Source: Alphaproteobacteria bacterium (GTDB taxonomy: Bacteria; Pseudomonadota; Alphaproteobacteria; ATCC43930; CGMCC-115725). Taken from it: a stretch of DNA of 64,000 bases. The notes below the pieces were generated by a model. It was not told the DNA's origin, searched no databases, and saw only the letters and a list, made by a program, of their open reading frames with translations. The stretch spans positions 1 through 64,000 of the forward strand of contig JAJPHB010000079.1 of the NCBI GenBank assembly GCA_021325525.1, written 5' to 3'. The position numbers and the translations under genes were made by a program. Of this stretch, positions 41,317-56,694 are shown piece by piece; the first letter of the stretch is position 1; each line of letters opens with the position of its first letter.

Positions 41317-43422
41317 ATGCGGGTCGATATGGCTGATTCCCGGTCCGGTCAGGAAAGCTCCAGCGCGCGCGATATCAGGATCACCAGCGAGGTGAAGGGA
41401 TTCGATTTCGTCTGCCTCTCGATGAGAGCCGATGAATATGTGAGCCGCCCCTTCGTCATAGAGCTCGAACTGCTGATCGCCGATTTCGACCTCGAAATGA
41501 AAAATTTTCTCGGCAAGCACATGACCGTCGAGCTCGACGTCAAGGACGGGCTCATTCGCTATTTCGACGGCATCATCACCCAGTTCAGCTATCTGACGGC
41601 GGTTCGCGGCGCCGCCTGCTACAAGGCGACGCTCCGACCGTGGCTGTGGCTCTTGACGCGCAACATCCAGTCGAAGGTGCATTACGTTCAGCCCGATCAG
41701 GCCGTTTCGGCGACCGGGACCGCCGACCAGAACACGGCCGGGACGGCGCCCAACATCATCAAGAACCTGTTCAGCAACGCCGGCTTCAGCGACGTCGAGT
41801 TCAAGCTGTCGCGCAGCTACCGAGTCCGCGACTTCTGCGTGCAGTATCAGGAGAGCGACTTCGCCTTCGTCAGCCGCCTGATGGAGCAGGAGGGCATCTA
41901 CTATTACTTCAAGCATGAGAGCGGCAAGCACACTCTCGTCCTCGCCGACAGCAGCACGGCGCATGCGCCGTTCGACAACAGCCTGACCAACATCTCCTAC
42001 ACCAACCAGGAGCATTCGGGTCAGCGCGCGGACTACATCCACGAATGGTCGGTCTCGCTCGAGATCCAGTCCGGCAAGCTGACCATCCGCGACTATGATT
42101 TCACCGGCCCCAACGCCAATCTCGACAAGGTCAAGTCGATGGCGCAGGGCCACGCCTCGGACAGCTACGAGATCTACGAATACCCGGGCAAGTACACGAA
42201 GCCGGCGGATGGCGAAGCCTATGCCGGCGTCCATCTCGAGGCCGAGGTGGCGCGCTTCGAGCGCGGCGCCGGCACGAGCAATGCGCGCTGGCTCGCGCCC
42301 GGCTATCTCTTCACGTTGGCCGATGCGGCGCGCAGCGACCAGAACCGGCAATACCTCGTGCTCGAGGCGCACAGCACCATCCATGCCGAGTTCCGCGGCG
42401 AGGACCGGCAGCCGTTCCGGACGAGCTTCGTCGCCCTGCCGAACACCTACGCCTATCGCCCGCCGCGGCTGACGCCGCGCCCCTTCATCCGCGGGCCGCA
42501 GACGGCGGTCGTCGTCGGCCCGAGCGGGCAGGAGATCTACACCGACAAGTACGGGCGCGTGAAAGTGCAGTTCCTGTGGGACCGCATCGGCACCAAGGAC
42601 GAGAACAGCTCCTGCTGGATCCGCTGCGCCCAGGCCTGGGCCGGCAAGTCATGGGGCTGGGTCTTCATTCCGCGCATCAATCAGGAGGTGATCGTCCATT
42701 TCGCCGAGGGCGACCCCGACCGGCCAATCATCACCGGCGCCGTCTACAACGGCCCCGAGGACCAGCCTTCGCCGATCACGCTCCCCGACAACGCGACGCA
42801 ATCGACGGTCAAGTCGAATTCGAGCCTCGGCGGCAACGGCTTTAACCAGATCATGTTCGAGGACAAGGCGGGCAGCGAGAACTTCTACATGCACGCCCAG
42901 AAGGACATGAACATCGAGGTGCTGAACAACCGTACGACGACGATCACTCAGGACGATACCGAGACGGTGAAGCAGGGCAACCGCTCGCTGACCGTGTCGC
43001 AGGGCAACGAGACGAAAGAGATCAGCCAGGGCAACCAGTCGCTCAAGGTCGCGCAGGGCAACCAGACGATCGAGGTGACGCAGGGCAACCGCACCATCAC
43101 CGTCGGCCAGGGCAACGAGGAGGTCGACATCAACGCCGGCGGCCACACGATGAAGGTGGCGCAGAACTACCAGCTCACGATCAGCCAGGGCAATTACACG
43201 GTCTCGATCTCCTCGGGCTCCGCCTCGCTGACGGCCGCGCAAGGCATCACCATCTCCTCCGACGAGTCGATCACCCTCTCGGTCGGCAGCAACAGCATCA
43301 GCATCGGCACCTCCGGCATCACCATCAGCGGCATGAATGTCAGCGTCAGCGCCGATATCGAGGCGAAGCTCGCCGGCTCGGCGACGGCGACGATCCAAGG
43401 CGGGATCGTCAATATCAATTAG
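41317..43422 (+). CDS. vgrG: T6SS spike protein VgrG
   Basis: This 701-residue trimeric spike protein (TssI) caps the Hcp tube. The gp27-like N-terminal part includes SRPFVIELELL, FDGIITQFSYL, RPWLWLLTRN, CVQYQESDFAFVSRLMEQEG and IYYYFKHE. The gp5/OB region has YTDKYGRVKVQFLWDR, SSCWIRCAQAWAGKSWGW and IPRINQEVIVHFAEGDPDRP. The needle (about 500-701) is repetitive and ends without an extra effector domain. It contains six exact 9-residue repeats. The separate PAAR gene on the opposite strand probably supplies the tip. No DUF4123 or DUF2169 adaptor is adjacent. Confidence 0.95.
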   Translation: MRVDMADSRSGQESSSARDIRITSEVKGFDFVCLSMRADEYVSRPFVIELELLIADFDLEMKNFLGKHMTVELDVKDGLIRYFDGIITQFSYLTAVRGAACYKATLRPWLWLLTRNIQSKVHYVQPDQAVSATGTADQNTAGTAPNIIKNLFSNAGFSDVEFKLSRSYRVRDFCVQYQESDFAFVSRLMEQEGIYYYFKHESGKHTLVLADSSTAHAPFDNSLTNISYTNQEHSGQRADYIHEWSVSLEIQSGKLTIRDYDFTGPNANLDKVKSMAQGHASDSYEIYEYPGKYTKPADGEAYAGVHLEAEVARFERGAGTSNARWLAPGYLFTLADAARSDQNRQYLVLEAHSTIHAEFRGEDRQPFRTSFVALPNTYAYRPPRLTPRPFIRGPQTAVVVGPSGQEIYTDKYGRVKVQFLWDRIGTKDENSSCWIRCAQAWAGKSWGWVFIPRINQEVIVHFAEGDPDRPIITGAVYNGPEDQPSPITLPDNATQSTVKSNSSLGGNGFNQIMFEDKAGSENFYMHAQKDMNIEVLNNRTTTITQDDTETVKQGNRSLTVSQGNETKEISQGNQSLKVAQGNQTIEVTQGNRTITVGQGNEEVDINAGGHTMKVAQNYQLTISQGNYTVSISSGSASLTAAQGITISSDESITLSVGSNSISIGTSGITISGMNVSVSADIEAKLAGSATATIQGGIVNIN
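42973..43134 (+). repeat. Six 27-bp in-frame repeats in the vgrG needle
   Basis: Each unit begins CAGGGCAAC (Gln-Gly-Asn) and recurs exactly every 27 bases at 42973, 43000, 43027, 43054, 43081 and 43108. The protein period is nine residues (QGNRSLTVS, QGNETKEIS, QGNQSLKVA, and so on). A degenerate copy (QGNYTVSIS) follows further on. The periodicity fits a repeating beta-strand needle. Confidence 0.9.
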
Positions 43423-43439: not shown

Positions 43440-43730
43440 TTATCCGCCGATCATCACCGTCGGGCAGCCCAGGGTGATGACGCCGCCATGGCCCGTCGGG
43501 TCGCCCATGCGGGCGGCCGGCAGCTTGCCGATCATGACCGTCGTCGAGCCCATGGCGATAATATCGGGAGGGCCGGTGCAGGTCGCCTGATCGGTGGCTC
43601 TCGCCGCCGGCATCTTGCCGATCATGACGGTGGGGCAGCCGGGCGGGATGATGGGGCCGCCGACATGCGGCACGACGCCCGTCACCATCGGACAGGTGTG
43701 CATGTCGCCCGCGCGCGCCGCCGGCGGCAT
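43440..43730 (-). CDS. PAAR-domain spike-tip protein
   Basis: This 96-residue PAAR protein forms the metal-stabilised sharp tip on VgrG. It begins MPPAARAGDMHTCP and has three similar strand-turn repeats (PGCPTVMIGKMPAARATD, MGSTTVMIGKLPAARMGD, LGCPTVMIGG) with the conserved His and Cys residues. It is a stand-alone PAAR without a fused toxin. Its ATG lies one base beyond the stop of the upstream sheath-like gene, so it is co-translated. It converges on vgrG with a 17-bp gap. Confidence 0.92.
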   Translation of the reverse strand: MPPAARAGDMHTCPMVTGVVPHVGGPIIPPGCPTVMIGKMPAARATDQATCTGPPDIIAMGSTTVMIGKLPAARMGDPTGHGGVITLGCPTVMIGG

Positions 43731-43731
43731 C

Positions 43732-45507
43732 TCAGAGCCCCTTCAAGAGCTCGGCGAGCTCCGGATCCATCTCGCCCTCGCCGCTCTCCGCCTCGGCCGG
43801 CGCCTCCTCGCCGGAGGGCGCGTCCTCGCTCGGCGCCTCCTCGGCTGGCGTGTCGTCGAGGCTGGCCATAAGCTCGTCGAGGTTGCTGTCCGCGCTCTCG
43901 CCGCCATCGCCGGAATCGGCTGCCGCCTCCTCGCCCTCGGCGGGCGCCTCCTCACCTTCCGCCGGCGCCTCGGCCTCGCCTTCGGCGGCGGGCGCGGTCT
44001 TCGGCGTGAAGACGGCGCCGGTCGGCTCCGGCCAGCGCCCGGCGAGCGGTACGCCGGCGAGCGAGGTGAAGCCGCCGAGGCGCACCTCGGGCCGCCCCTT
44101 GATCGACAGGAGCGGAATGAAATGCTCCGACTTGACGCGCGCGGCGACGCGCTCGCTCATCAGGCGCTCGGTGCAGGGAAGCGCGGTCTGGTCGCCCTCC
44201 TCGTCGACATAGAAGTAATAGGGAATGTCCCCCGCCGTCAGGACGGTCCCGAGATTCATTTTGGCGCCCTGCTTGGCGAAAGTCTGGGCCAGCATGAGCC
44301 CGGCCATGAAGGCGGGATTGCCCCACAGCATGCCTTTGAGGCCGGTCTGCGGTGTGAACTCTTCGAAATCATCGAAGCTGTCGATCGGGTCGGTGCGCTC
44401 GCCATAGGGCTGGCGCAGCAGGAAGCGCGGCGTCACCAGCGCGAGATAGCGCGCCTCGTCGAGGCCGCGCAGCCCGTCCCAGGCCGCGGTGATGAGCGGG
44501 TGGACATCGGCCGGGGCGGTCTGGAGGAAGTCGGGGCTGATCGCGGAGATAAACGGCGCGTTCGCCTCCGCCGCGAGCTTCGCCATGCGGCCCAGAAGCT
44601 CGGCCTGAGGCGGCGTCTGGTCGAAGACATAGGCGCCGATCATCGCGGCGAGCGCCCCCTGGCCGGCATCGAGCGCCGGCTGCTCGACGAGGAGCTTGAA
44701 GAGCCCGGTCTCTTCCAGCGAGTCCCGGCTCGACAAATCGGCCGCGAATTCCTCGGCCGAGACGTCGTAGAGGACGATCTGGAGCTGGGTGCTGGTCTCG
44801 ATACGGCGCGTCAGCAGATCGACCGAGCGCCACAGCGATTCCAGGATCTGGAAGTCGGGATGATGCAGCACCTTGCGCATCGTCGCGGCGAGCGCCTTGT
44901 CGAGCGAGGCGAGGAGCGCCGCCTGCTGCGGATCCTTGGCCTTGACGATGTAGGGCCGCACCACGGATTTGAGGAGATCCTCGACGGCGATATCGACATG
45001 GTCGCGCGGCGCCGAGGGCTGGCCGATCAGCTTGGCGAAATCGCTGAGCTTGCCGCCGCGCGGGACCGTGGCGCCGCGCGGCCGGCGATGGCCGGCATGG
45101 CTGCGCGGCGCCGGCTCGGCGCGCCAGGCGACCATCTCCTTCGCCGCGGCGGCGAAGCCCGACTTGCTGGTGAGGCGCCGGCGCAGATCGGCCATCGCCG
45201 AGAACAGCTCGACCTTGTCGTAAAGCTGGTCCGGATGGAAGTCGTCCATGCCGGTGATCGGAAACTCGACCGCGCCCTCGCCGGCCATCGGCAGCGACAC
45301 GGTGATCTTCAACCGCTCGATCACCTGGTCAATATTGTCGACATCGACGCGGAGCGGCTTGCGTTTGGCGAGCTTGTCGCCGATCTCGAGGCGGCCCTTG
45401 TTGGCGCCGGCCGAGAAATCGCCCAGCACGGCGAGACGGAAAGGCGCCCCCGCCGACACCTTGCGCGCCGTCGCATCCGCCCCCATGACGCCGAAATTCA
45501 GCTCCAT
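43732..45507 (-). CDS. TssB/TssC-fused sheath-like paralogue with acidic tail
   Basis: This 591-residue protein has three parts. Residues about 20-112 match TssB (FRLAVLGDFSAG, RVDVDNIDQVIERL, FPITGMDDFHPDQLYDKVEL). Residues about 205-490 match the first two-thirds of TssC (LHHPDFQILESLWRSVDLL, AYVFDQTPPQAELLGRMA, ANAPFISAISPDFLQ, YLALVTPRFLLRQPYGERTD). The last roughly 85 residues are a Glu/Ala/Asp/Pro-rich acidic tail. The C-terminal TssC portion seen in the canonical copy (YLFASCRFAHYLKCIVRDK onward) is absent. A canonical tssB and tssC are both present upstream, so this is a second sheath-type component. Rhizobial T6SS loci also carry a second TssC-like gene. A Shine-Dalgarno sequence (AAGGAGAG) precedes the start. 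Confidence 0.82.
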   Translation of the reverse strand: MELNFGVMGADATARKVSAGAPFRLAVLGDFSAGANKGRLEIGDKLAKRKPLRVDVDNIDQVIERLKITVSLPMAGEGAVEFPITGMDDFHPDQLYDKVELFSAMADLRRRLTSKSGFAAAAKEMVAWRAEPAPRSHAGHRRPRGATVPRGGKLSDFAKLIGQPSAPRDHVDIAVEDLLKSVVRPYIVKAKDPQQAALLASLDKALAATMRKVLHHPDFQILESLWRSVDLLTRRIETSTQLQIVLYDVSAEEFAADLSSRDSLEETGLFKLLVEQPALDAGQGALAAMIGAYVFDQTPPQAELLGRMAKLAAEANAPFISAISPDFLQTAPADVHPLITAAWDGLRGLDEARYLALVTPRFLLRQPYGERTDPIDSFDDFEEFTPQTGLKGMLWGNPAFMAGLMLAQTFAKQGAKMNLGTVLTAGDIPYYFYVDEEGDQTALPCTERLMSERVAARVKSEHFIPLLSIKGRPEVRLGGFTSLAGVPLAGRWPEPTGAVFTPKTAPAAEGEAEAPAEGEEAPAEGEEAAADSGDGGESADSNLDELMASLDDTPAEEAPSEDAPSGEEAPAEAESGEGEMDPELAELLKGL

Positions 45508-45552: not shown

Positions 45553-48252
45553 TCAAGCGGGATCGCCGAAATCGTAGCGGAACTCGCCATCGGCGGCGCT
45601 GACCTGAAGCCGCGTCACCGGCCGCCCCGTCATCATGCGGTCGAGGAATTCGTGGCTGATCGCCGGCAGCATCGTGTTGGTGAGGATGGCGTCGATCATG
45701 CGGCCGCCGCTTTCGAGCTCGGTGCAGCGGCTGGCGATCAGCTTGACGACGCTGTCGTCATAGCCGACCGGGATCTTGCGCGTCTCCTCGATGCGCTTCT
45801 GGATGCGGCCCAATTGCAGGCGGATGATGTTCTCGATCATCGTCTGGCTGAGCGGATAATAGGGGATGACGATGAGGCGGCCCAGAAGCGCCGCCGGGAA
45901 CACTTTGAGAAGCGGCTGGCGCAGCGCCTTGGCGATGCCGTCGGGATCGGGCAGCAGCTCCGGGTCCTTGCACAGATTCATGATGAGATCGCTGCCGACA
46001 TTCGAGGTCAGCAGGATGAGCGTGTTCTTGAAGTCGATGAGGCGGCCCTCGCCATCCTCCATGACACCCTTGTCGAAGACCTGGAAGAAGATCTCGTGGA
46101 CGTCGGAATGCGCCTTCTCGACCTCGTCGAGGAGGACGACGCTGTAGGGCTTGCGCCGCACCGCCTCGGTCAGGATGCCGCCCTCGCCATAGCCGACATA
46201 GCCGGGCGGCGCGCCCTTCAGGGTGGAGACCGTGTGCGCCTCCTGGAACTCGCTCATATTGATGGTGATAACGTTCTGCTCGCCGCCATAGAGGGCCTCG
46301 GCGAGGGTGAGGGCCGTCTCCGTCTTGCCGACGCCCGAGGGGCCGCAGAGCATGAAGACGCCGATCGGCTTCGAGGGATTGTCGAGCCCGGCGCGCGAGG
46401 TCTGGATGCGCTTCGCTATCATGTGCATCGCGTGGTCCTGGCCGACGACGCGCTGCGAGAGGATGCCGGCGAGGTTGAGGATCGTCGCGACCTCGTCCTT
46501 CACCATCCGGCCGACGGGAATGCCGGTCCAATCCTGGACGACGGTCGCGACCGCCTGCTGATCGACGGTCGGAAGGATGAGCGGCGCCTCTCCTTGCAGC
46601 TCGGCGAGGCGGCCTTGCAGCTCCCTCAGCTCGGCGAGGAGCTTGGCGCGGTCGGGCGACTGCGCCGCCTGCCCTTCGGGCGGCGCCTCGACGGTCCCGC
46701 CCTCGCCGCGCAGCTCGGCACGGATCTTGAGGAGGCGATCGACGAGATCCTTCTCGGCTTTCCAGCGCTCTTCGAGCCCCGCGAGCCGCTCGCGCTCGGC
46801 GGCGAGCTTGCTGCGCGCCTCGCCCTCGCGCGCCGCCGTCTCGACGCCGATCGCTGCTTCCCGGCCGATGATCTGGAGCTCGGTTTCGAGCGCCTCGATG
46901 CGGCGGCGGCTGTCATCGACCTCGGGCGGCACGGCATGCTGGCTGATGGCGACGCGGGCGCAGGCGGTGTCGAGGAGGCTCACCGCCTTGTCGGGGAGCT
47001 GGCGCGCCGGAATGTAGCGATGCGAAAGCCTCACCGCCGCTTCGAGCGCCTCGTCCAGAACCTGGACGCGGTGGTGCTTCTCCAGAGTCGAGACCATGCC
47101 GCGCATCATGAGGATGCCCTTCGCCTCGTCGGGCTCCTCGACCTGCACCACCTGGAAGCGGCGCGTGAGCGCCGGGTCCTTCTCGATATGCTTCTTGTAC
47201 TCGGCCCAGGTCGTGGCGGCGACGGTGCGCAAGGTGCCGCGGGCAAGCGCCGGCTTCAGGAGGTTGGCGGCATCGCCCGTGCCGGCGGCGCCGCCGGCAC
47301 CGACGAGAGTGTGCGCCTCATCGATGAAGAGGATGATCGGCTTCGGCGAGGATTGCACCTCCTCGATGACGGAGCGCAGGCGCTGCTCGAACTCGCCCTT
47401 CATGCTGGCCCCCGCCTGCAGGAGGCCGACATCGAGGGTCAGAAGCCGCACCTCGCGCAGGCTCGGCGGCACGTCGCCGGCGGCGATGCGGAGCGCGAAG
47501 CCCTCGACGACGGCGGTCTTGCCGACGCCGGCCTCGCCGGTGAGGATGGGGTTGTTCTGGCGGCGCCGCATCAGGATGTCGACGACCTGGCGGATCTCCT
47601 CGTCGCGGCCGACGATGGGGTCGATCTCGCCCTTCCGCGCCTTTTCGGTCAGATCCACCGTGAAGCGCTTCAGCGCCTCCTCCTTTCCCATCTGCGCCGG
47701 GGCGATGGCGCCGCTCGCCTCGCCGGGCGCGGCCCCGCCCGCGAGGTTGGAGCCGTCGGAGGCGCCGAGCCCGTCCTCCGGCGAGCCGGAGACGATCTGC
47801 GGCAAGCGCTCGGCGAGGTCGTCGGGCTTCACCTTGGCGAATTCCTTCGAGATCGCGAGAAGCGCGTTCTTCAGCCCCGATGTCTTGAGGCAGCCGAGGA
47901 GGAGATGGCCGGTGCGCACCTGCGCCTCGCCGAACATCAGCGTGCCGAAGACCCAGCCGCGCTCGACCGCCTCCTCGACATGCGCCGAGAGGTCGGAGAC
48001 GGCGGTGGCGCCGCGCGGCAGGCGGTCGAGCGCCGCCGTCAGCTCCTTCGCGAGGACAGCCCCGTTGATATCGAAGGCTTTGAGAATGCGATGGAGGTCG
48101 GAATCTTGAAGCTGCAGGATCTGGTGGATCCAGTGCACGAGCTCGACATAGGGGTTGCCGCGCAGCTTGCAAAAGACGGTCGCCGCCTCGATCGCGCGAT
48201 AGGCGAGGCTGTTGAGCTTGCCGAAGAGAGCGACACGGCTGATATCGGCCAT
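45553..48252 (-). CDS. tssH: T6SS AAA+ ATPase ClpV (TssH)
   Basis: This is the 899-residue ClpB-family disaggregase that recycles the contracted TssB/TssC sheath. It has an N-domain (ISRVALFGKLNSLAYRAIEA, the sheath-binding part). AAA1 has Walker A LTGEAGVGKTAVVEG and Walker B ILFIDEAHTLVGAG. A middle coiled coil lies at about 430-560. AAA2 has CGPSGVGKTETALTLAEAL, SEFQEAHTVSTLKGAPPGYV and VVLLDEVEKAHSDV. The D2-small domain is near the C-terminus. MADISRVALFG at 48252 is the start. A 70-bp gap separates it from tssG. Confidence 0.96.
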   Translation of the reverse strand: MADISRVALFGKLNSLAYRAIEAATVFCKLRGNPYVELVHWIHQILQLQDSDLHRILKAFDINGAVLAKELTAALDRLPRGATAVSDLSAHVEEAVERGWVFGTLMFGEAQVRTGHLLLGCLKTSGLKNALLAISKEFAKVKPDDLAERLPQIVSGSPEDGLGASDGSNLAGGAAPGEASGAIAPAQMGKEEALKRFTVDLTEKARKGEIDPIVGRDEEIRQVVDILMRRRQNNPILTGEAGVGKTAVVEGFALRIAAGDVPPSLREVRLLTLDVGLLQAGASMKGEFEQRLRSVIEEVQSSPKPIILFIDEAHTLVGAGGAAGTGDAANLLKPALARGTLRTVAATTWAEYKKHIEKDPALTRRFQVVQVEEPDEAKGILMMRGMVSTLEKHHRVQVLDEALEAAVRLSHRYIPARQLPDKAVSLLDTACARVAISQHAVPPEVDDSRRRIEALETELQIIGREAAIGVETAAREGEARSKLAAERERLAGLEERWKAEKDLVDRLLKIRAELRGEGGTVEAPPEGQAAQSPDRAKLLAELRELQGRLAELQGEAPLILPTVDQQAVATVVQDWTGIPVGRMVKDEVATILNLAGILSQRVVGQDHAMHMIAKRIQTSRAGLDNPSKPIGVFMLCGPSGVGKTETALTLAEALYGGEQNVITINMSEFQEAHTVSTLKGAPPGYVGYGEGGILTEAVRRKPYSVVLLDEVEKAHSDVHEIFFQVFDKGVMEDGEGRLIDFKNTLILLTSNVGSDLIMNLCKDPELLPDPDGIAKALRQPLLKVFPAALLGRLIVIPYYPLSQTMIENIIRLQLGRIQKRIEETRKIPVGYDDSVVKLIASRCTELESGGRMIDAILTNTMLPAISHEFLDRMMTGRPVTRLQVSAADGEFRYDFGDPA

Positions 48253-48322
48253 CAGAGGTCTCCTGTGGTGACGATGGCGCGCTGGCCGCCGCCCTGATGC
48301 TGCGGGGTTGGGCGAGCGGGCG

Positions 48323-49351
48323 TCATGCGGCGCTCCGGTAGGGGGTGAGCAGAAGGTCGGCGGCATCGCGCTCGCTCCGCCGCGTGCCGAGCCAGCTCGT
48401 CCAGCCGAGGAGCCCCGCCTTGCCGAGGCGCAGCTCCGGGACCTCATCCTTCAGGAGAATGAGGTTGACGTCCCAGGAGAACTCGTCGCCCACATAGTTG
48501 CGGACGATCGGCACGAGACGTTCGAGGCTCTTGCCGCCGGGGAGGAGCCGCGCGTAATCGGCAAAGCCGATGGGGCCGATGAGGATGCGGAATTTGTGAT
48601 GGAAGACGCGGATGCGGGCGCCCGCCGTCGCCGTCGAGCCCAAGGTTCCCGTCTCCGGCGCCTCGCCCAGCATGCAGAGCGAATGCGGCGGCAGGCTCAC
48701 CCATTCGGGAATGAACTCGTCGATCTCGACGGGCAGCTTGAAGAAATCGGCGATGATGGCGCGCAGTCCCTCGGCATTGCGCGTCTGGTTGGCAAGGCGC
48801 CCGGCGAAATGCAGCTTCGCGAGGTCGGGCATCGCATCGCGCTGCCGCGCCTCGGCAAAGCCGAGGCCGAAGAGCGAGGCGACATAGGTGCCGAAGCGGT
48901 CGACATCAGGCCGGTCATGGCTCACCGTCGGCTGCGCCGCCGCCCAGGCGCGGTAGAAGAGCGACAGCATGCGGTGGTGGAAAATGTCGACGAAGCGGGC
49001 CAGGGTCGGATCGCCGGCATTGCGCTGCCGGTCGCGTGCGTATTCGGTGATGTGCAGCGGCAGCGCGCCGCTCGGCCCGAAGACGCCGAAGAAATAGGTC
49101 GAGAGTCGGGCCGGGCGCTCGCCGGCGGGAACGAAGTCGGCGAGCGTCGCCGGCGCGAAGATGACCGACGGAATCTGGCCGAGGCGAACCGGATCCTCGG
49201 CCGGCCGCGTCGACTCGCCGAAGCGCGGCCGATCGGGATGCGCGGCCTCGATGCGCCGCAAGGCCTGGAAGAAATCGAAGGCGTAGGGCGCGGCGCCGAG
49301 CGCTCGGTAGAGCTCTAGAGCGTGTGGCGGCGTCCGATCTTCATCGGCCAT
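48323..49351 (-). CDS. tssG: T6SS baseplate protein TssG
   Basis: This 342-residue baseplate component is of the ImpH/VasB family. The N-terminus DFFQALRRIEAAHPDRPRFG is typical, followed by FFGVFGPSGALPLHITEYAR, the FVDIFHHRMLSLFYRAWAAA segment and LLPGGKSLERLVPIVRNYVG. TssG pairs with TssF and TssE/TssK to form the wedge. It starts at MADEDRTPPH inside the 3' end of tssF (37-base overlap), so the two are translationally coupled. The frame upstream of 49351 is a shadow of tssF. Confidence 0.94.
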   Translation of the reverse strand: MADEDRTPPHALELYRALGAAPYAFDFFQALRRIEAAHPDRPRFGESTRPAEDPVRLGQIPSVIFAPATLADFVPAGERPARLSTYFFGVFGPSGALPLHITEYARDRQRNAGDPTLARFVDIFHHRMLSLFYRAWAAAQPTVSHDRPDVDRFGTYVASLFGLGFAEARQRDAMPDLAKLHFAGRLANQTRNAEGLRAIIADFFKLPVEIDEFIPEWVSLPPHSLCMLGEAPETGTLGSTATAGARIRVFHHKFRILIGPIGFADYARLLPGGKSLERLVPIVRNYVGDEFSWDVNLILLKDEVPELRLGKAGLLGWTSWLGTRRSERDAADLLLTPYRSAA

Positions 49352-51189: not shown

Positions 51190-51704
51190 CAGCGGCGGCC
51201 CGTCTCCGACTGCTCTGTGACGCGCACGGCGCCGAGCTCGAGGTCGAGCTCGGTCTTCATGAACATGCGCAGCGGCACGGGCTGGGCCCAGAGCTCGGCC
51301 ACCATCTGGAGCTGCAGCGCGCTCTGGCTGCCCTCGTCGCCGCTGCCGGCGAGCTTCACCCGCACGGTCTTGCCGAGAAGCCGCGGCTCGAAGCGGATCA
51401 CGGCCTCGCGGATGGCGCGCTCGATGTCGGTCGAATCGAGGCGCGACTGGACCATGCCGGAAAAGCTCGGGACCCCGTAATTGACGACGGAACGCGCGAC
51501 TTCGGGATATTCGGAGAGATCCTCGGTCGAAGCGAGGTTGGGCGTGTTGAGGAGCCAGGTGAGGTCGCGCAGGACGGCCTGCCGCAGCTTTTGCAGCGAG
51601 ATGGCCCGCTGCTCGCGGGATTCCTGCGTCTTCTGCGGCTCGTCGTCGGTCAATCGGTCGAGCAGCGCCGGCTGAAGCCGCTCCTGCGTCGTCAGCTCAG
51701 CCAT
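51189..51704 (-). CDS. tssE: T6SS baseplate gp25-like protein TssE
   Basis: This 171-residue member of the gp25/lysozyme-like family connects baseplate to sheath. It contains QPALLDRLTDDEP, LRQAVLRDLTWLLNTPNLAS, YPEVARSVVNYGVPSFSG and the conserved AIREAVIRFEPRL. The start MAELTTQERL overlaps the end of tagJ by eight bases. The frame is open 15 codons further, but this ATG fits the family N-terminus. Confidence 0.94.
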   Translation of the reverse strand: MAELTTQERLQPALLDRLTDDEPQKTQESREQRAISLQKLRQAVLRDLTWLLNTPNLASTEDLSEYPEVARSVVNYGVPSFSGMVQSRLDSTDIERAIREAVIRFEPRLLGKTVRVKLAGSGDEGSQSALQLQMVAELWAQPVPLRMFMKTELDLELGAVRVTEQSETGRR

Positions 51705-52509
51705 GCTCGCCCGCCGGCGGCTGCTGGTCGATCTCGATCGAGCGGGCATCCATCAGCGGAAACTCGCCGGCATCAGTGGCAAGGAGGCGCTGCCCGCGGC
51801 CCTCGAAGCTGTCGGGCGCCGTCTCCACCCATTCGGTCTTGCGGGCGAGGCGGATAAGCGGATCGGGGCTCGCCTCGGAACCGAAATAGCGTGTCGGGAT
51901 GAGCCCGACCGTCTCGCCGCCATTCGCCAGGGTGAAGCGGACCGGCATCCAGACCTGGTCGCGCAGGTCGCTCGGGGCGTCGATATCGATGCGGGCGAGA
52001 CGCATGAAGGGCAGCCAGAAATAGCGGCCATTGACGATTGCCTCGAGCATGGGGCCGAGCCGACTGTCGGCATCGGCGATCCATTCGAAAGCCTCGCCGT
52101 CGATGCGGCCGGTGCTCGGCGGCGCCGCTTCGAGCGCCTTGGCGCGCAGCGCCGACGCGGCGCCGTGCTCGCCGCGGGCGGCGAGGCGCAGCGCCTCGTA
52201 GAGCTCCGCCATCCAGGGCTGCGGGTCGCCGAAGATGGTGGGAGCCGCCTCGCCGGTGAAGGCTTGGCGTCGCGCCGCCTCGCAGGCGATGGCGCCGCCA
52301 TAGACACGCGCCATCAGCATGGCGCCTTGATCCATCTGATGCGCCACTTCGAGCTGCGTCTTGGCGCGTTCCCAGGCGCCTGTCACGCAGGAGAGCTGAA
52401 AGAGGAAGATGCGGAGCTTCGGGTTGGCCGGATCGGCACGGATCTGGTCGAGGAGACGCGCCACCGCCTCCTCCAGCTTGCCACCGCGCAACAGCTCTGC
52501 CGCATCCAT
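51697..52509 (-). CDS. tagJ: T6SS accessory protein TagJ (ImpE/SciE family)
   Basis: This 270-residue protein has an N-terminal TPR-like helical part (AELLRGGKLEEAVARLLDQI, LRIFLFQLSCVTGAWERAKT) and a C-terminal ImpE domain (FWLPFMRLARIDIDAPSDLR, DQVWMPVRFTLANGGE, LIPTRYFGSE). TagJ binds TssB in several systems and is found in those with an ImpE-type locus. It lies between hcp and tssE, the usual place in imp-type clusters. MDAAELLRGG is the start. Confidence 0.92.
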   Translation of the reverse strand: MDAAELLRGGKLEEAVARLLDQIRADPANPKLRIFLFQLSCVTGAWERAKTQLEVAHQMDQGAMLMARVYGGAIACEAARRQAFTGEAAPTIFGDPQPWMAELYEALRLAARGEHGAASALRAKALEAAPPSTGRIDGEAFEWIADADSRLGPMLEAIVNGRYFWLPFMRLARIDIDAPSDLRDQVWMPVRFTLANGGETVGLIPTRYFGSEASPDPLIRLARKTEWVETAPDSFEGRGQRLLATDAGEFPLMDARSIEIDQQPPAGEHG

Positions 52510-52590
52510 CGCTCGCCCCCCGCGCCGCTCGCCGCCCCGAGCCGGCGCCGCTATCCGCAACGGAGAGCGGCGCGCGGCCTCGGCTCGGCT

Positions 52591-53172
52591 CTAGGGCTTG
52601 GCGCTGCCCGACGGGTCGGACGCGCCGTAGCCGCCATCGAAGACGTTGCTGTTCTTGACGCGGTCCCACATCGACGACTTCTTGTTCGCCGTATCGGCGG
52701 CGCCCGTCGGCTTCTGCGGGAAATAGACGATGCAGAGCGCGCCGTATTCGAATTTGATGTCCTCGGTCGGCGCCGGGTCGCCATGCTTCCATTCGATGTT
52801 GGAGATGGCGACCATCTTGAAGAAGAACTGCAGATATTTGTAGCCGCTCTGCGACGCGGAGGAGCCGCCGGAGCGGCGCAGGAACAGCGCCACCTCCTGG
52901 TAATGGCCGCCGGCGCAGCAGGTGTGGAAGAGATAGGGCGAAGCCTTGTCGATCGACTTCGTCACCGCAAAGGAATCGAAGCTGACCTTGCCCGAACCGG
53001 CGCCGCCCGACATGCTGCCGATATTCGTCGGGTTGCTGGCGCCGAAGCTCCAATTCGAGATCTCGAAGGGGACCGGGCTCATCTTCGCCATGTCGCGGTC
53101 CTTGGTCTCGCCGTTGAGATCGACGGCGTTGTCGCCCTTCTTGGTGAATTGCAGAAATGCATCGATTGCCAT
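52591..53172 (-). CDS. Hcp tube protein, copy A
   Basis: This 193-residue Hcp (TssD) family protein forms hexameric rings that stack into the inner tube. It starts MAIDAFLQFTKKGDNAV and shows PFEISNWSFGAS, VTKSIDKASPYLFHTCCAGG, YQEVALFLRRSGG and FEYGALCIVYFPQK. The double cysteine lies at the loop typical for this subgroup. A C-terminal tail of roughly 25 residues is longer than in minimal Hcp. It lies just upstream of tagJ and is the third of three hcp genes in transcription order. Confidence 0.92.
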   Translation of the reverse strand: MAIDAFLQFTKKGDNAVDLNGETKDRDMAKMSPVPFEISNWSFGASNPTNIGSMSGGAGSGKVSFDSFAVTKSIDKASPYLFHTCCAGGHYQEVALFLRRSGGSSASQSGYKYLQFFFKMVAISNIEWKHGDPAPTEDIKFEYGALCIVYFPQKPTGAADTANKKSSMWDRVKNSNVFDGGYGASDPSGSAKP

Positions 53173-53325: not shown

Positions 53326-53862
53326 TCAGATGGCCGCGTCGTAATCGGCCGAGTTGGTCACCTGGCTCCATTGCGTCGTCGCGGCCTCGCCGAGGCCGCC
53401 GGTCTGCTTCTGCGCCGTGTATTTGAATTGCAGCGCGCCGTAGTCGAAGCTGATGGTCTCGGTCGGCACCTCGCCGTTCGACCACTGGATGTTCGAGACC
53501 ATGACGAGCTTGAAGCCGATCTGGAGGTAGGTCTGCCCGCTCTGCGAGGGAGTGCCGCCGGCGCGGCGGACGAAGAGGTTGAGCTCCTTGTAGTGGCCGC
53601 CGACGCAGCAGGTGTAGAAGAGGTTGGGCGAGGCCGAATCGATGTTCTTGGTGACGCGGAACGGCTCGAACTTCGCCTTGCCGGTGCCGCCGCCCGCCTT
53701 CGAGCTGCCGATGCTCACCGGCAGCGAAACCGAGAAGCCCCAGTCGCTGATCTCGAAGGGCGCCGGGCTCATCGCCTTCATTTGCTGGTCCTGCGTCTCG
53801 CCGATCAGCTCCGGCGCGCCGTCTCCCGTCGAGGTGAATTGAAGAAATGCATCGACCGCCAT
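53326..53862 (-). CDS. Hcp tube protein, copy B
   Basis: This 178-residue Hcp family protein is clearly paralogous to copy A (MAVDAFLQFTSTGDGAPEL, PFEISDWGFSVS, VTKNIDSASPNLFYTCCVGG, YKELNLFVRRAGG, FDYGALQFKYTAQK), with many substitutions. It has a short, acidic C-terminal tail. It is the middle gene of three. A 150-bp gap follows before copy A, so separate translation or a processing site is possible. Confidence 0.92.
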   Translation of the reverse strand: MAVDAFLQFTSTGDGAPELIGETQDQQMKAMSPAPFEISDWGFSVSLPVSIGSSKAGGGTGKAKFEPFRVTKNIDSASPNLFYTCCVGGHYKELNLFVRRAGGTPSQSGQTYLQIGFKLVMVSNIQWSNGEVPTETISFDYGALQFKYTAQKQTGGLGEAATTQWSQVTNSADYDAAI

Positions 53863-53986: not shown

Positions 53987-54658
53987 TTAGACTCCGTCCT
54001 CGCCGCCATCGCTCGACCCGTCCGGCAGCGCGAATTCGGCGGATTTCGCCGCGTTCTCCCGGCCGCCCGTATGCTTCTGCGGCCAGTATTCGATCTTCAT
54101 CGAGCGATAGCTGAGCTGTACGGTCTCGAGCGGCGGCGCTTCCGCGCCGCCGGTCGTCCAGTCCATGTTGGTGACGACCACCTGGCCGAAGGTGATCTTG
54201 AGAAAGACATGTCCGGCGGCGGCGATCGTGCCGCCGGCGCGGCGCTGGATGAGGCAGACCTCGTCATAGGTCGCATTGGTGCAGAGCGCCTGGAAGAGGC
54301 CGGGCGTGCCGGAATCGACGGCCTTGCTGAAGGTGAAGTTGTTCAGCTTCGGCTTCGGCAGCCAATTGGCATTGCCGGATTTCCCCGCGGCGGCCTTGGC
54401 CTTCTTGAGCTGATAGGGCCAGAGCGCCTCGATCGAGAGGCCGAGCTGGTAGGATTGGAGCTCGATGGGAGATCCGGCGATCGCCTCCTTGCGGTCGATT
54501 CCGGCCGAGGCGCCGTCATCCTTGCCGCTGCCCGCCGACCCCTTCGACGACGGAACGAGCGCCAGATCCGTCGTCTCGCCTTCGATCGCGACCGTGTCGC
54601 CGGCCTTGTTCTTCTTGAAGTAGAGAAAGGCGTCGAGCGCTTCGGAGGTTCTGGCCAT
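53987..54658 (-). CDS. Hcp tube protein, divergent copy C
   Basis: This 223-residue Hcp-like protein has a recognisable fold (ALDAFLYFKKNKAGD, FTFSKAVDSGTPGLFQALC, YDEVCLIQRRAGG, LSYRSMKIEYWPQKHTGG). It carries about 30-40 extra residues around positions 36-100, including a Gly/Ser/Asp-rich loop (SSKGSAGSGKDDGASAG), and only one of the two cysteines seen in copies A and B. It lies directly after tssC (21-bp gap), the position of a structural hcp in many loci. It could form its own tube or act as a specialised ring. Confidence 0.87.
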   Translation of the reverse strand: MARTSEALDAFLYFKKNKAGDTVAIEGETTDLALVPSSKGSAGSGKDDGASAGIDRKEAIAGSPIELQSYQLGLSIEALWPYQLKKAKAAAGKSGNANWLPKPKLNNFTFSKAVDSGTPGLFQALCTNATYDEVCLIQRRAGGTIAAAGHVFLKITFGQVVVTNMDWTTGGAEAPPLETVQLSYRSMKIEYWPQKHTGGRENAAKSAEFALPDGSSDGGEDGV

Positions 54659-54679: not shown

Positions 54680-56176
54680 TTATTTGCCGGACGGCATCTT
54701 GGAGACGAGGCGGAGCGACACCGTCAGCCCTTCGAGCTGGTAATGCGGCCGCAGGTAGAAGCGCGACTGGTAGTAGCCGGGATTGCCTTCGATCGGCTCG
54801 ACCTCGACCTTGGCCTCGCGCAGCGGCTTCATCGCCTTGGTGACCTCGCTCGAAATCTGCGGCGAGCTGTCGACATATTGCGAGATCCAGCTATTGAGCC
54901 AGGCCTCCATGTCCTCGCGCTCCTTGAAGGAGCCGATCTTGTCGCGGACGATGCATTTCAAGTAATGCGCGAAGCGGCAGCTCGCGAAGAGATAGGGCAG
55001 GCGCGCCGAGATCTCGGCATTGGCCGTCGCGTCCGGATTCTCGTATTGCGTCGGCTTCTGCAGCGACTGCGCGCCGATGAAGGCGGCATAGTCGGTGTTC
55101 TTGCGATGGATGAGCGGCATGAAGCCGTTCTTCGCCAGCTCGGCCTCCCGGCGGTCGCTGATCGCGATCTCGGTCGGGCATTTCGCCTCGACGCCGCCGT
55201 CATCGGTGGGGAAGGTGTGCGTCGGCAGGCCTTCGACGAGGCCGCCCGATTCGATGCCGCGGATGCGCGAGCACCAGCCGTAGAGCTTGAAGGAGCGGTT
55301 GATGTTGACGGCCATCGCATAGGCCGAGTTGGCCCAGGTGTATTTCGAGTGGTCGGCGCCCTCGGTTTCCTCCTCGAAGGCGAATTCGTCGACGGGGTTG
55401 GTCTTGGCGCCGTAGGGCATGCGCGCCAGGAAGCGCGGCATGGTGAGGCCGATATAGCGCGAATCCTCGGATTCGCGCAGCGAGCGCCAGGCGGCGTATT
55501 CCGGCGTCTGGAAGATCTTGGTGAGGTCGCGCGGATTGGCGAGCTCCTGCCAGGACTCCATCTGCATGACGCCGGGATCGGCGGCGGCGATGAAGGGCGC
55601 GTGCGCCGCCGCCGCGATCTGGGCGATGCCGGAGAGCAGCTCGACGTCGGGCGGGCTGTGGTCGAAGTAATAGTCGCCGACGAGGCAGCCATAGGGCTCG
55701 CCGCCGAACTGGCCGTATTCCTCCTCGTAGATCTTCTTGAAGATGGGGCTCTGATCCCAGGCCGTGCCCTTGAACTTCTTCAAGGTGCGCGCGAGCTCCT
55801 TCTTCGAGATGTTGAGGACGCGGATCTTCAACATCTCGTCGGTTTCGGTATTGGTGACGAGATGATGGAGGCCGCGCCAGGCGGACTCCAATTGCTGGAA
55901 GTCGGGATGATGGATGATCTTGTTGATCTGCTCGGTGAGCTTGGCATCGATCGCGGCGATGATCGCCTCGATGGTGCGCAGCGCGTCCGAGCCGATGAGC
56001 TTGGTGTCGGCGAGGGCGTGCTCGGCGAGGGTCTGCACCGCCGTCGCCACGGCCTCCTTCGCCGTGTCGGTCTTCGGCTTGAACTCCTTCTGCAGGAGCG
56101 AGGAGAACTCGTTCAGCTCGATCTGGCCGGCGACAGCCTCCTGGGCCTGGGTCTGCGGGCTTGCCATCGCGGTCAC
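54680..56176 (-). CDS. tssC: T6SS contractile sheath large subunit TssC
   Basis: This 498-residue VipB/EvpB-family sheath protein contains IHHPDFQQLESAWRGLHHLV, YGCLVGDYYFDHSPPDVELL, AAAHAPFIAAADP, YIGLTMPRFLARMPYG, WANSAYAMAVNIN, then the complete C-terminal half (ARLPYLFASCRFAHYLKCI, YYQSRFYLRPHYQLEGL). It starts in ATGA overlap with the tssB stop, as expected for stoichiometric sheath subunits. Confidence 0.96.
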   Translation of the reverse strand: MTAMASPQTQAQEAVAGQIELNEFSSLLQKEFKPKTDTAKEAVATAVQTLAEHALADTKLIGSDALRTIEAIIAAIDAKLTEQINKIIHHPDFQQLESAWRGLHHLVTNTETDEMLKIRVLNISKKELARTLKKFKGTAWDQSPIFKKIYEEEYGQFGGEPYGCLVGDYYFDHSPPDVELLSGIAQIAAAAHAPFIAAADPGVMQMESWQELANPRDLTKIFQTPEYAAWRSLRESEDSRYIGLTMPRFLARMPYGAKTNPVDEFAFEEETEGADHSKYTWANSAYAMAVNINRSFKLYGWCSRIRGIESGGLVEGLPTHTFPTDDGGVEAKCPTEIAISDRREAELAKNGFMPLIHRKNTDYAAFIGAQSLQKPTQYENPDATANAEISARLPYLFASCRFAHYLKCIVRDKIGSFKEREDMEAWLNSWISQYVDSSPQISSEVTKAMKPLREAKVEVEPIEGNPGYYQSRFYLRPHYQLEGLTVSLRLVSKMPSGK

Positions 56177-56694
56177 TCTCCCTTCGCTTCGTCGGCGGCC
56201 TCGGCCTTCGGCGCCGAGGCCAGCGCCTGCATCAGCGCCGGATCGGCGAGGACCTTATTGAGCAAGGTCTCGGCGCCGGTCTTGCCGTCCATATAGGTCA
56301 AGAGGTTCGAGAGCTGGGTGCGCGCCTCGAGCAGCTTGTTGAGCGCATCGACCTTGCGCGCCACCGCGGCCGGCGAGAAATCGTCCATGCTCTCGAAGGT
56401 GAGATCGACCGCGAGGTTGCCTTCGCCGGTCAGCGTGTTCTCGACATTGAAGGCGACGCGCGGCTTCATCGATTTGAGGCGCGCATCGAAATTGTCGATG
56501 TCGATCTCCAGCATCTTGCGGTCGGCAACGGGCGCCAGCGGCTCGGCCGGCTTGCCCGAGAGATCAGCCATGACGCCCATGACGAAGGGCAGCTGGATCT
56601 TCTTCTCCGACCCGTAGACCTCGACGTCATATTCGATCTGGACGCGCGGCGCGCGGTTCCGGGCAATGAATTTCTGACTATTGGCTTTGGCCAT
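56173..56694 (-). CDS. tssB: T6SS contractile sheath small subunit TssB
   Basis: This 173-residue VipA-family protein has RVQIEYDVEVYGSEKKIQLP, FVMGVMADLSGKPAEPLAPV, LEIDIDNFDARLKSMKPRVA and FESMDDFSPAAVARKVDALN. It has a typical C-terminal helix for ClpV/TssC contacts. tssC follows in ATGA overlap. A Shine-Dalgarno sequence (TAGGAG) lies upstream. Confidence 0.96.
   Translation of the reverse strand: MAKANSQKFIARNRAPRVQIEYDVEVYGSEKKIQLPFVMGVMADLSGKPAEPLAPVADRKMLEIDIDNFDARLKSMKPRVAFNVENTLTGEGNLAVDLTFESMDDFSPAAVARKVDALNKLLEARTQLSNLLTYMDGKTGAETLLNKVLADPALMQALASAPKAEAADEAKGE

What the first reader, a model, noticed from the sequence alone, without database searches (positions are those of the whole stretch)
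43732..45507. A second sheath-type T6SS protein combining TssB-like and truncated TssC-like parts with an acidic tail
The locus has intact, coupled tssB and tssC. It also encodes a 591-residue protein whose first ~110 residues look like TssB and whose middle ~285 residues look like the first two-thirds of TssC. The TssC C-terminal half is missing and replaced by ~85 residues rich in Glu, Ala, Asp and Pro. Because the C-terminal part of TssC contributes to inter-protomer contacts, this protein is unlikely to be an ordinary sheath protomer. It could be a cap, initiator or length/contraction regulator. It is co-translated with the PAAR tip gene and sits next to clpV. Rhizobial loci carry a second TssC-like gene (TssC40/ImpD), so this may belong to that group; whether that group also has the TssB-like part and tail I cannot say.
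Basis: partly seen in the sequence, partly recalled or inferred. Interest (0 to 1): 0.75.

Follow-up and report, generated by a model that had tools for sequence, protein, structure and literature searches.

The report
Armless sheath-like T6SS protein with sticky tail
Next to a normal set of genes for a bacterial contractile 'crossbow' (type VI secretion) lies a gene for a one-chain imitation of a sheath building block that has lost both arms that link blocks together and instead carries short repeated docking helices; relatives occur in many marine and soil bacteria (one form was named TssCL in 2022), its job is unknown, and the best guess is that it docks on the sheath and handles the machine that takes the sheath apart.

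Summary
Window 43732-45507 (minus strand) encodes a 591-aa protein: TssB-like 21-114, TssC-like 198-481, acidic tail 496-591. AlphaFold2 gives a confident one-chain sheath protomer. It lacks exactly the parts that interlock protomers: the TssB N-terminal arm and the TssC C-terminal domain (PF18945). It is not TssC40/ImpD: 12 of 12 TssC40-type proteins keep PF18945 and lack a TssB part, and the tree separates the groups. It is a short form of TssCL, described in 2022 from roseobacters (PMC9515649), function unknown, said to be confined to Alphaproteobacteria.
New here: the family also occurs in Planctomycetota MAGs and Beta-/Gammaproteobacteria. All 78 complete tailed members end in a conserved helical motif ([DE]LAALLxxL). 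Rhodobacterales forms add a full TssB plus a long array of the motif. The motif partly resembles TssC's own N-terminal helix ([DE]FxxLL), through which ClpV recognises sheath in V. cholerae. The contraction residue D333 is absent in 40 of 40.
Best reading (about 0.4): a non-polymerising sheath pseudo-protomer that docks on sheath and recruits or titrates the ClpV recycling machinery. Rivals: baseplate-side initiator, distal cap. Docking and partner are inferred, not shown.

The parts
43732..45507 (-). short TssCL-type gene: single-chain armless sheath pseudo-protomer, 591 aa
45166..45447 (-). TssB/VipA-like part, residues 21-114; begins just after where the canonical N-terminal linker arm would end
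   Evidence: PF05591 profile positions 26-122 of 155; alignment with tssB
45019..45048 (-). linker element LSDFAKLIGQ (residues 154-163), aligned with the N-terminal helix of canonical TssC (LNEFSSLLQ)
44065..44916 (-). TssC/VipB-like part, residues 198-481, without the C-terminal gp25-like domain
   Evidence: PF05943 E 2.6e-49, no PF18945; VIA-align Z 28.9 to P. aeruginosa TssC1
43735..44022 (-). disordered acidic tail, residues 496-591
   Evidence: pLDDT under 50 at 496-538 and 552-578
43858..43884 (-). tail motif 1, NLDELMASL (542-550), conserved [D]LDxLLxx[FL] helix
   Evidence: helix 540-551 in the model; 166 motifs in 78 tails against 2.6 in shuffled tails
43735..43773 (-). tail motif 2, exact C-terminus EMDPELAELLKGL (579-591)
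   Evidence: present in 78 of 78 complete homologues; helix 582-589, pLDDT 77
43440..43730 (-). PAAR spike-tip gene, 1 bp downstream
   Evidence: PF05488; sequence
45553..48252 (-). clpV (tssH), real start probably at MADISRV; Arg6/Asp87 groove class
   Evidence: TIGR03345
54680..56176 (-). canonical tssC
56173..56694 (-). canonical tssB, its end overlapping the start of tssC
51697..52560 (-). tagJ (ImpE)
   Evidence: PF07024 E 1.4e-44; ORF
41317..43422 (+). vgrG, convergent neighbour
   Evidence: ORF; tblastn with it finds annotated vgrG/tssI in related loci

Best explanation
The gene makes a soluble, single-chain mimic of a TssB-TssC sheath protomer that cannot polymerise in the normal way, because the TssB N-terminal linker and the TssC C-terminal linker domain that interlace protomers are absent (shown by sequence and model). 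I infer that it docks on the sheath, at its surface or an end, through the retained outer domains, and that its short helices act as extra docking sites for the same partner that reads the TssC N-terminal helix. These are one [DE]FxxLI element in the B-C linker and two [DE]LxxLL-type motifs in the tail. That partner is most likely the ClpV recycling machinery, so the protein would recruit, or hold off, sheath disassembly. In Rhodobacterales a complete TssB is fused in front of a long array of the same motif, which should let the protein enter the sheath lattice itself and display many motifs. Shown: architecture, missing arms, conserved motifs, family. Inferred: sheath docking, partner, effect on recycling.
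For: Both arms missing in the whole family: 40 of 40 VipA plus VipB, 0 of 40 VipB_2; the alignment shows loss of TssB residues before the core and of the TssC C-terminal domain. [quoted passage not shown] D333, needed for contraction, is lost in 40 of 40. Confident model (pLDDT 82, pTM 0.80) with the fold of T6SS TssC, and of one-chain phage/eCIS sheaths across both halves. Tail motifs are conserved far above shuffles and are the only helices predicted in the tail. A 7-position profile from 16 TssC N-terminal helices picks the C-terminal motif as the best match in the protein in 51 of 77 members against 9.0 with permuted columns, and the linker in 11 against 4.0. In Aquabacterium the tail ends DFSVLLKDLRKP while its own TssC helix is EFASLLNKEFKPK. 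ClpV is present in all 10 whole genomes checked (a megaplasmid record alone had none), and clpV lies upstream within 3 kb on the same strand in 38 of 54 loci.
Against: All 51 ClpVs in these loci have Arg6, so they belong to the class whose N-domain groove is closed and did not bind the TssC N-helix of P. aeruginosa (PMC4239648). The 10-position TssC helix profile does not pick the tail, so the likeness is limited to [DE]FxxLL. vgrG is the closer conserved neighbour (within 500 bp in 47 of 54 loci), which fits a baseplate role better. Most gammaproteobacterial members lack the tail. No interaction data exist.
Confidence: 0.4

Rival explanations
1. Baseplate-side initiator or adaptor: an armless pseudo-ring that sits under the first real sheath ring and links sheath, baseplate and VgrG/PAAR spike, helping start polymerisation.
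For: vgrG directly downstream on the same strand in 48 of 54 loci, 47 of them within 500 bp; PAAR 1 bp downstream in the window; gammaproteobacterial members also lie beside vgrG in L196, L205 and L202.
Against: It lacks the gp25-like handshake domain by which TssE and sheath interlock. Most of the 54 loci are from related Alphaproteobacteria, so the gene order is not independent. Many orphan copies have no vgrG within the stretch examined.
Confidence: 0.25
2. Distal cap or terminator: an end subunit without arms that stops sheath growth or limits its length.
For: A protomer that cannot offer the next linker is a natural chain terminator. The TssB-fused forms could add to a growing lattice.
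Against: TssA, the known cap-type component, is present in the same loci. Nothing in the sequence favours one end. Conserved peptide motifs are not explained.
Confidence: 0.15
3. Member of the TssC40/ImpD group, the essential second TssC of Agrobacterium.
For: Also a second TssC-like protein in a locus with canonical TssBC; roseobacter loci without TssCL can carry two tssC genes instead (PMC9515649).
Against: TssC40-type: 12 of 12 with VipB_2, 0 of 12 with VipA; separate clades at bootstrap 100; G394 carries a tssC, a TssC40-type gene and a family member.
Confidence: 0.03
4. Decaying remnant of a tssB-tssC fusion without function.
For: Reduced similarity to canonical TssB/TssC.
Against: Open frames in almost all members, many invariant family-specific residues across phyla, and a 78 of 78 conserved C-terminal motif.
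Confidence: 0.02

Closest known systems
TssCL of roseobacters (PMC9515649, 2022)
   Same: VipA-like plus VipB-like parts in one chain beside intact tssB and tssC in an H1-like T6SS locus; same clade (Ruegeria sp. ANG-S4, one of that paper's strains, is L123 here)
   Different: The window form has no N-terminal full TssB and no long motif array. That paper does not report, in the passages read, the missing C-terminal domain or the tail motifs, and found the protein only in Alphaproteobacteria.
TssC40 / ImpD (Atu4340, PMC3702570)
   Same: second TssC-related protein beside canonical TssBC; not redundant with the main TssC
   Different: TssC40-type proteins keep the PF18945 C-terminal domain, have no TssB part, and form a separate clade
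One-chain sheath proteins of R-pyocin, AFP, PVC and other eCIS
   Same: TssB-like and TssC-like halves in one chain with the same overall fold (Z about 14 to 16.5 across residues 18-505)
   Different: Those have the interlocking arms and polymerise; the fit shows fold only
TssA caps
   Same: proposed to act on sheath ends
   Different: Unrelated family (ImpA_N); present separately in the locus

Membership tests
TssCL (PMC9515649) | VipA-like and VipB-like parts in one chain | tested here: met
   40 of 40 relatives
TssCL (PMC9515649) | encoded in a T6SS locus that keeps separate tssB and tssC | tested here: met
TssCL (PMC9515649) | common clade with roseobacter members | tested here: met
   BC clade with bootstrap 100 includes Rhodobacterales members
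TssCL (PMC9515649) | second, N-terminal VipA domain highly similar to TssB | tested here: not met
   only 20 residues precede the degenerate TssB part; fused TssB found in 43 other members. So this is a short form, not a TssCL in the strict sense.
TssC40/ImpD | VipB plus VipB_2, no TssB part, clusters with TssC40 | tested here: not met
Canonical TssC | C-terminal gp25-like domain and NCBI equivalog cut-off | tested here: not met
   no PF18945; 170.5 against 271.5 bits
Canonical TssB | NCBI equivalog cut-off and N-terminal arm | tested here: not met
   47.6 against 97.25 bits; arm absent
ClpV-binding protein | physical binding to ClpV | not testable with these tools
   only motif likeness to the TssC N-helix

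The most novel reading that the evidence does not exclude
A family of non-polymerising sheath pseudo-protomers, spread over several bacterial phyla, displays copies of the sheath's own disassembly-recognition helix as a multivalent array. It would thereby control when and where ClpV takes the contracted sheath apart; in Rhodobacterales the array is built into the sheath lattice through a fused TssB.
Probability: 0.25. Interest if true: 0.75.

Novelty: new variant of a known kind. Interest (0 to 1): 0.5.

Why it matters
T6SS sheaths are thought to be built from just TssB and TssC. Here is a conserved extra sheath-type component in many environmental bacteria that lacks exactly the linkers needed to polymerise and contract, yet keeps a sheath fold and strictly conserved docking peptides. 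It offers a natural tool to ask how sheath growth and ClpV recycling are controlled, and it corrects an annotation: databases call it 'sheath large subunit'.

Tried and rejected
1. TssC40/ImpD membership: rejected. 2. TagJ as the partner of the tail: not supported; one tailed genome (Salipiger DP6N14-6, G656) has no PF07024 hit, and gammaproteobacterial genomes with tail-less members often have TagJ. 3. A simple rule 'tail present where TssC lacks LLDEII': not clean for the same reason. 4. Orphan gammaproteobacterial copies were examined for a telling neighbour; besides vgrG in three, flanks are unrelated (NUDIX, TPR, BatD, GGDEF, methyltransferase, HypD). 5. Likeness of the tail motif to CheZ/FliM CheY-binding peptides is from memory only and was dropped; no CheY was looked for. 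6. A first conserved-stretch search with a diverse N-terminal alignment failed. 7. The 10-position TssC helix profile gave no enrichment at the tail. 8. The genome was not available as a file, so no proteome-wide motif background was computed. 9. No complex could be predicted; a second structure job was not used.

Full report
What is there. The gene runs on the minus strand from an ATG at 45507 to a TGA at 43734-43732 and encodes 591 residues. It lies 45 bp downstream of clpV and 1 bp upstream of a PAAR gene, with a convergent vgrG beyond. The locus reads, on the minus strand, tssA, tssB, tssC, three hcp-like genes, tagJ, tssE, tssF, tssG, clpV, this gene, PAAR. On the plus strand are vgrG, tssK and tagH.

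Domain content. Pfam finds T6SS_VipA at 21-114 and VipB at 198-481, and no VipB_2. The neighbouring tssC has VipB and VipB_2, and tssB is complete. NCBI's curated cut-offs for TssB and TssC are not reached. Refinement: what is missing is the C-terminal domain of about 112 residues of TssC and also the N-terminal arm of TssB. In V. [quoted passage not shown] So the two elements that interlace protomers are the two that are gone.

Structure. AlphaFold2 on 40 family members gives mean pLDDT 82 and pTM 0.80, with residues 1-490 mostly confident and the tail disordered except for helices 540-551 and 582-589. The TssC-like part matches P. aeruginosa TssC1 (Z 28.9, residues 189-505). One-chain sheaths of PVC, AFP, pyocin and other injection systems match across both halves (residues about 18-505, Z about 14 to 16.5). 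This shows fold, not function.

Family. Plasmid records gave Rhodobacterales relatives at 42-47% identity and Eleftheria terrae (Betaproteobacteria) at 42%. A genome-contig scan returned 80 loci, the cap, out of 489 relatives, from Rhodobacterales, Rhodospirillales, Acetobacteraceae, Rhizobium, Aquabacterium and six Planctomycetota MAGs. The six MAG sequences come from separate assemblies and group together near Rhodospirillales members in the tree, though MAG misbinning cannot be excluded for each. A survey of 369 genomes of the class of G601 found about a dozen more, mostly tail-less and away from the T6SS locus. Of 16 such genomes, 15 also have a TssC with VipB_2. Among 39 genomes of the window's own family, no other clear family member was found.

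Tail and array. All 78 members with a complete 3' end have a motif at or within three residues of the C-terminus, with consensus [DE]LAALLxxL (positions -8 to -4 carry 3.6 to 3.9 bits). Tails hold 166 motifs against 2.6 in shuffled tails. Members from Rhodobacterales and Rhizobium have N-terminal extensions of up to about 1170 residues with the same motif repeated (298 in 51 proteins against 21 in shuffles). At their very N-terminus 43 members carry a full canonical TssB, about 65-75% identical to the window's TssB. Two plasmid-record annotations (L033, L034) appear to start too late and miss that TssB.

Prior art. PMC9515649 (2022) named the long roseobacter form TssCL, reported two VipA and one VipB domains, found it only in Alphaproteobacteria, and left its function open. 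It is the only paper in the library that uses the name. The window protein is a short form of this family. Unfused forms occur in the other lineages, so I infer that the B-C core came first and the extra TssB was added later; I did not run a formal reconstruction.

Not TssC40. Agrobacterium TssC40 (ImpD) is needed for Hcp secretion and does not stabilise TssB (PMC3702570). Twelve proteins encoded directly after tssC (that is, TssC40-type by position) all have VipB plus VipB_2 and no VipA. [quoted passage not shown]

Function. The aspartate equivalent to VipB D333, needed for contraction (PMC5797969), is Asp in 20 of 20 canonical TssC and in none of 40 family members. The position was mapped through the alignment, whose V. 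cholerae residues fit D333 and K223. The protein is thus unlikely to contract or interlock. Its B-C linker keeps the element aligned with the TssC N-terminal helix (LSDFAKLIG against LNEFSSLLQ). A 7-position profile of that helix from 16 TssC proteins finds the family's C-terminal motif as its best match in 51 of 77 members (9.0 expected from permuted columns). The likeness is short, and the full 10-position profile does not show it. In V. cholerae that helix is where ClpV's N-domain binds. In the P. aeruginosa H1 class, with Arg6 and Asp87 in ClpV, it is not sufficient (PMC4239648), and the 51 ClpVs here all have Arg6. So ClpV is a plausible but unproven partner; TagJ is not a consistent one. 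Gene order points also to the spike: vgrG is within 500 bp downstream in 47 of 54 loci.

Verdict. A real, conserved, non-canonical sheath-type component; a short variant of the little-studied TssCL. I put 0.4 on a sheath-docking adaptor for the recycling machinery, 0.25 on a baseplate-side initiator, 0.15 on a cap, and the rest on readings not named.

Noticed in passing
window 52591-53172, 53326-53862, 53987-54658 (-): Three different Hcp-like genes in a row in one T6SS locus; the first of the operon (53987-54658) has an extended N-terminal region. Eleftheria terrae (L035) has four.
   Followed up: no
window 45553-48447 (-): The clpV ORF as listed begins too far upstream and overlaps tssG; the real start is probably MADISRV at about 48252.
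   Followed up: partly
L033:14039-14513, L034:12803-13655: Annotated starts of these TssCL genes seem too late: a complete TssB is in frame upstream.
   Followed up: partly
L196, L205 (G890, G766): Tail-less family members divergent from an orphan vgrG, with a GGDEF/PAS protein on the other side.
   Followed up: partly
G905: Genome (95% complete) with a family member but no VipB_2 (canonical TssC C-terminal) hit; could be incompleteness or a T6SS-independent copy.
   Followed up: no
L070 (G394): One cluster with tssB, tssC, a TssC40-type gene and a tail-less family member together.
   Followed up: partly
L033:12230-14070, L034:10639-12810: A hypothetical protein and an ion-channel-like protein lie between clpV and TssCL in two Rhodobacterales T6SS loci.
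   Followed up: no
L035:33256-35355: A row of RebB-family R-body genes close to the Eleftheria T6SS locus.
   Followed up: no
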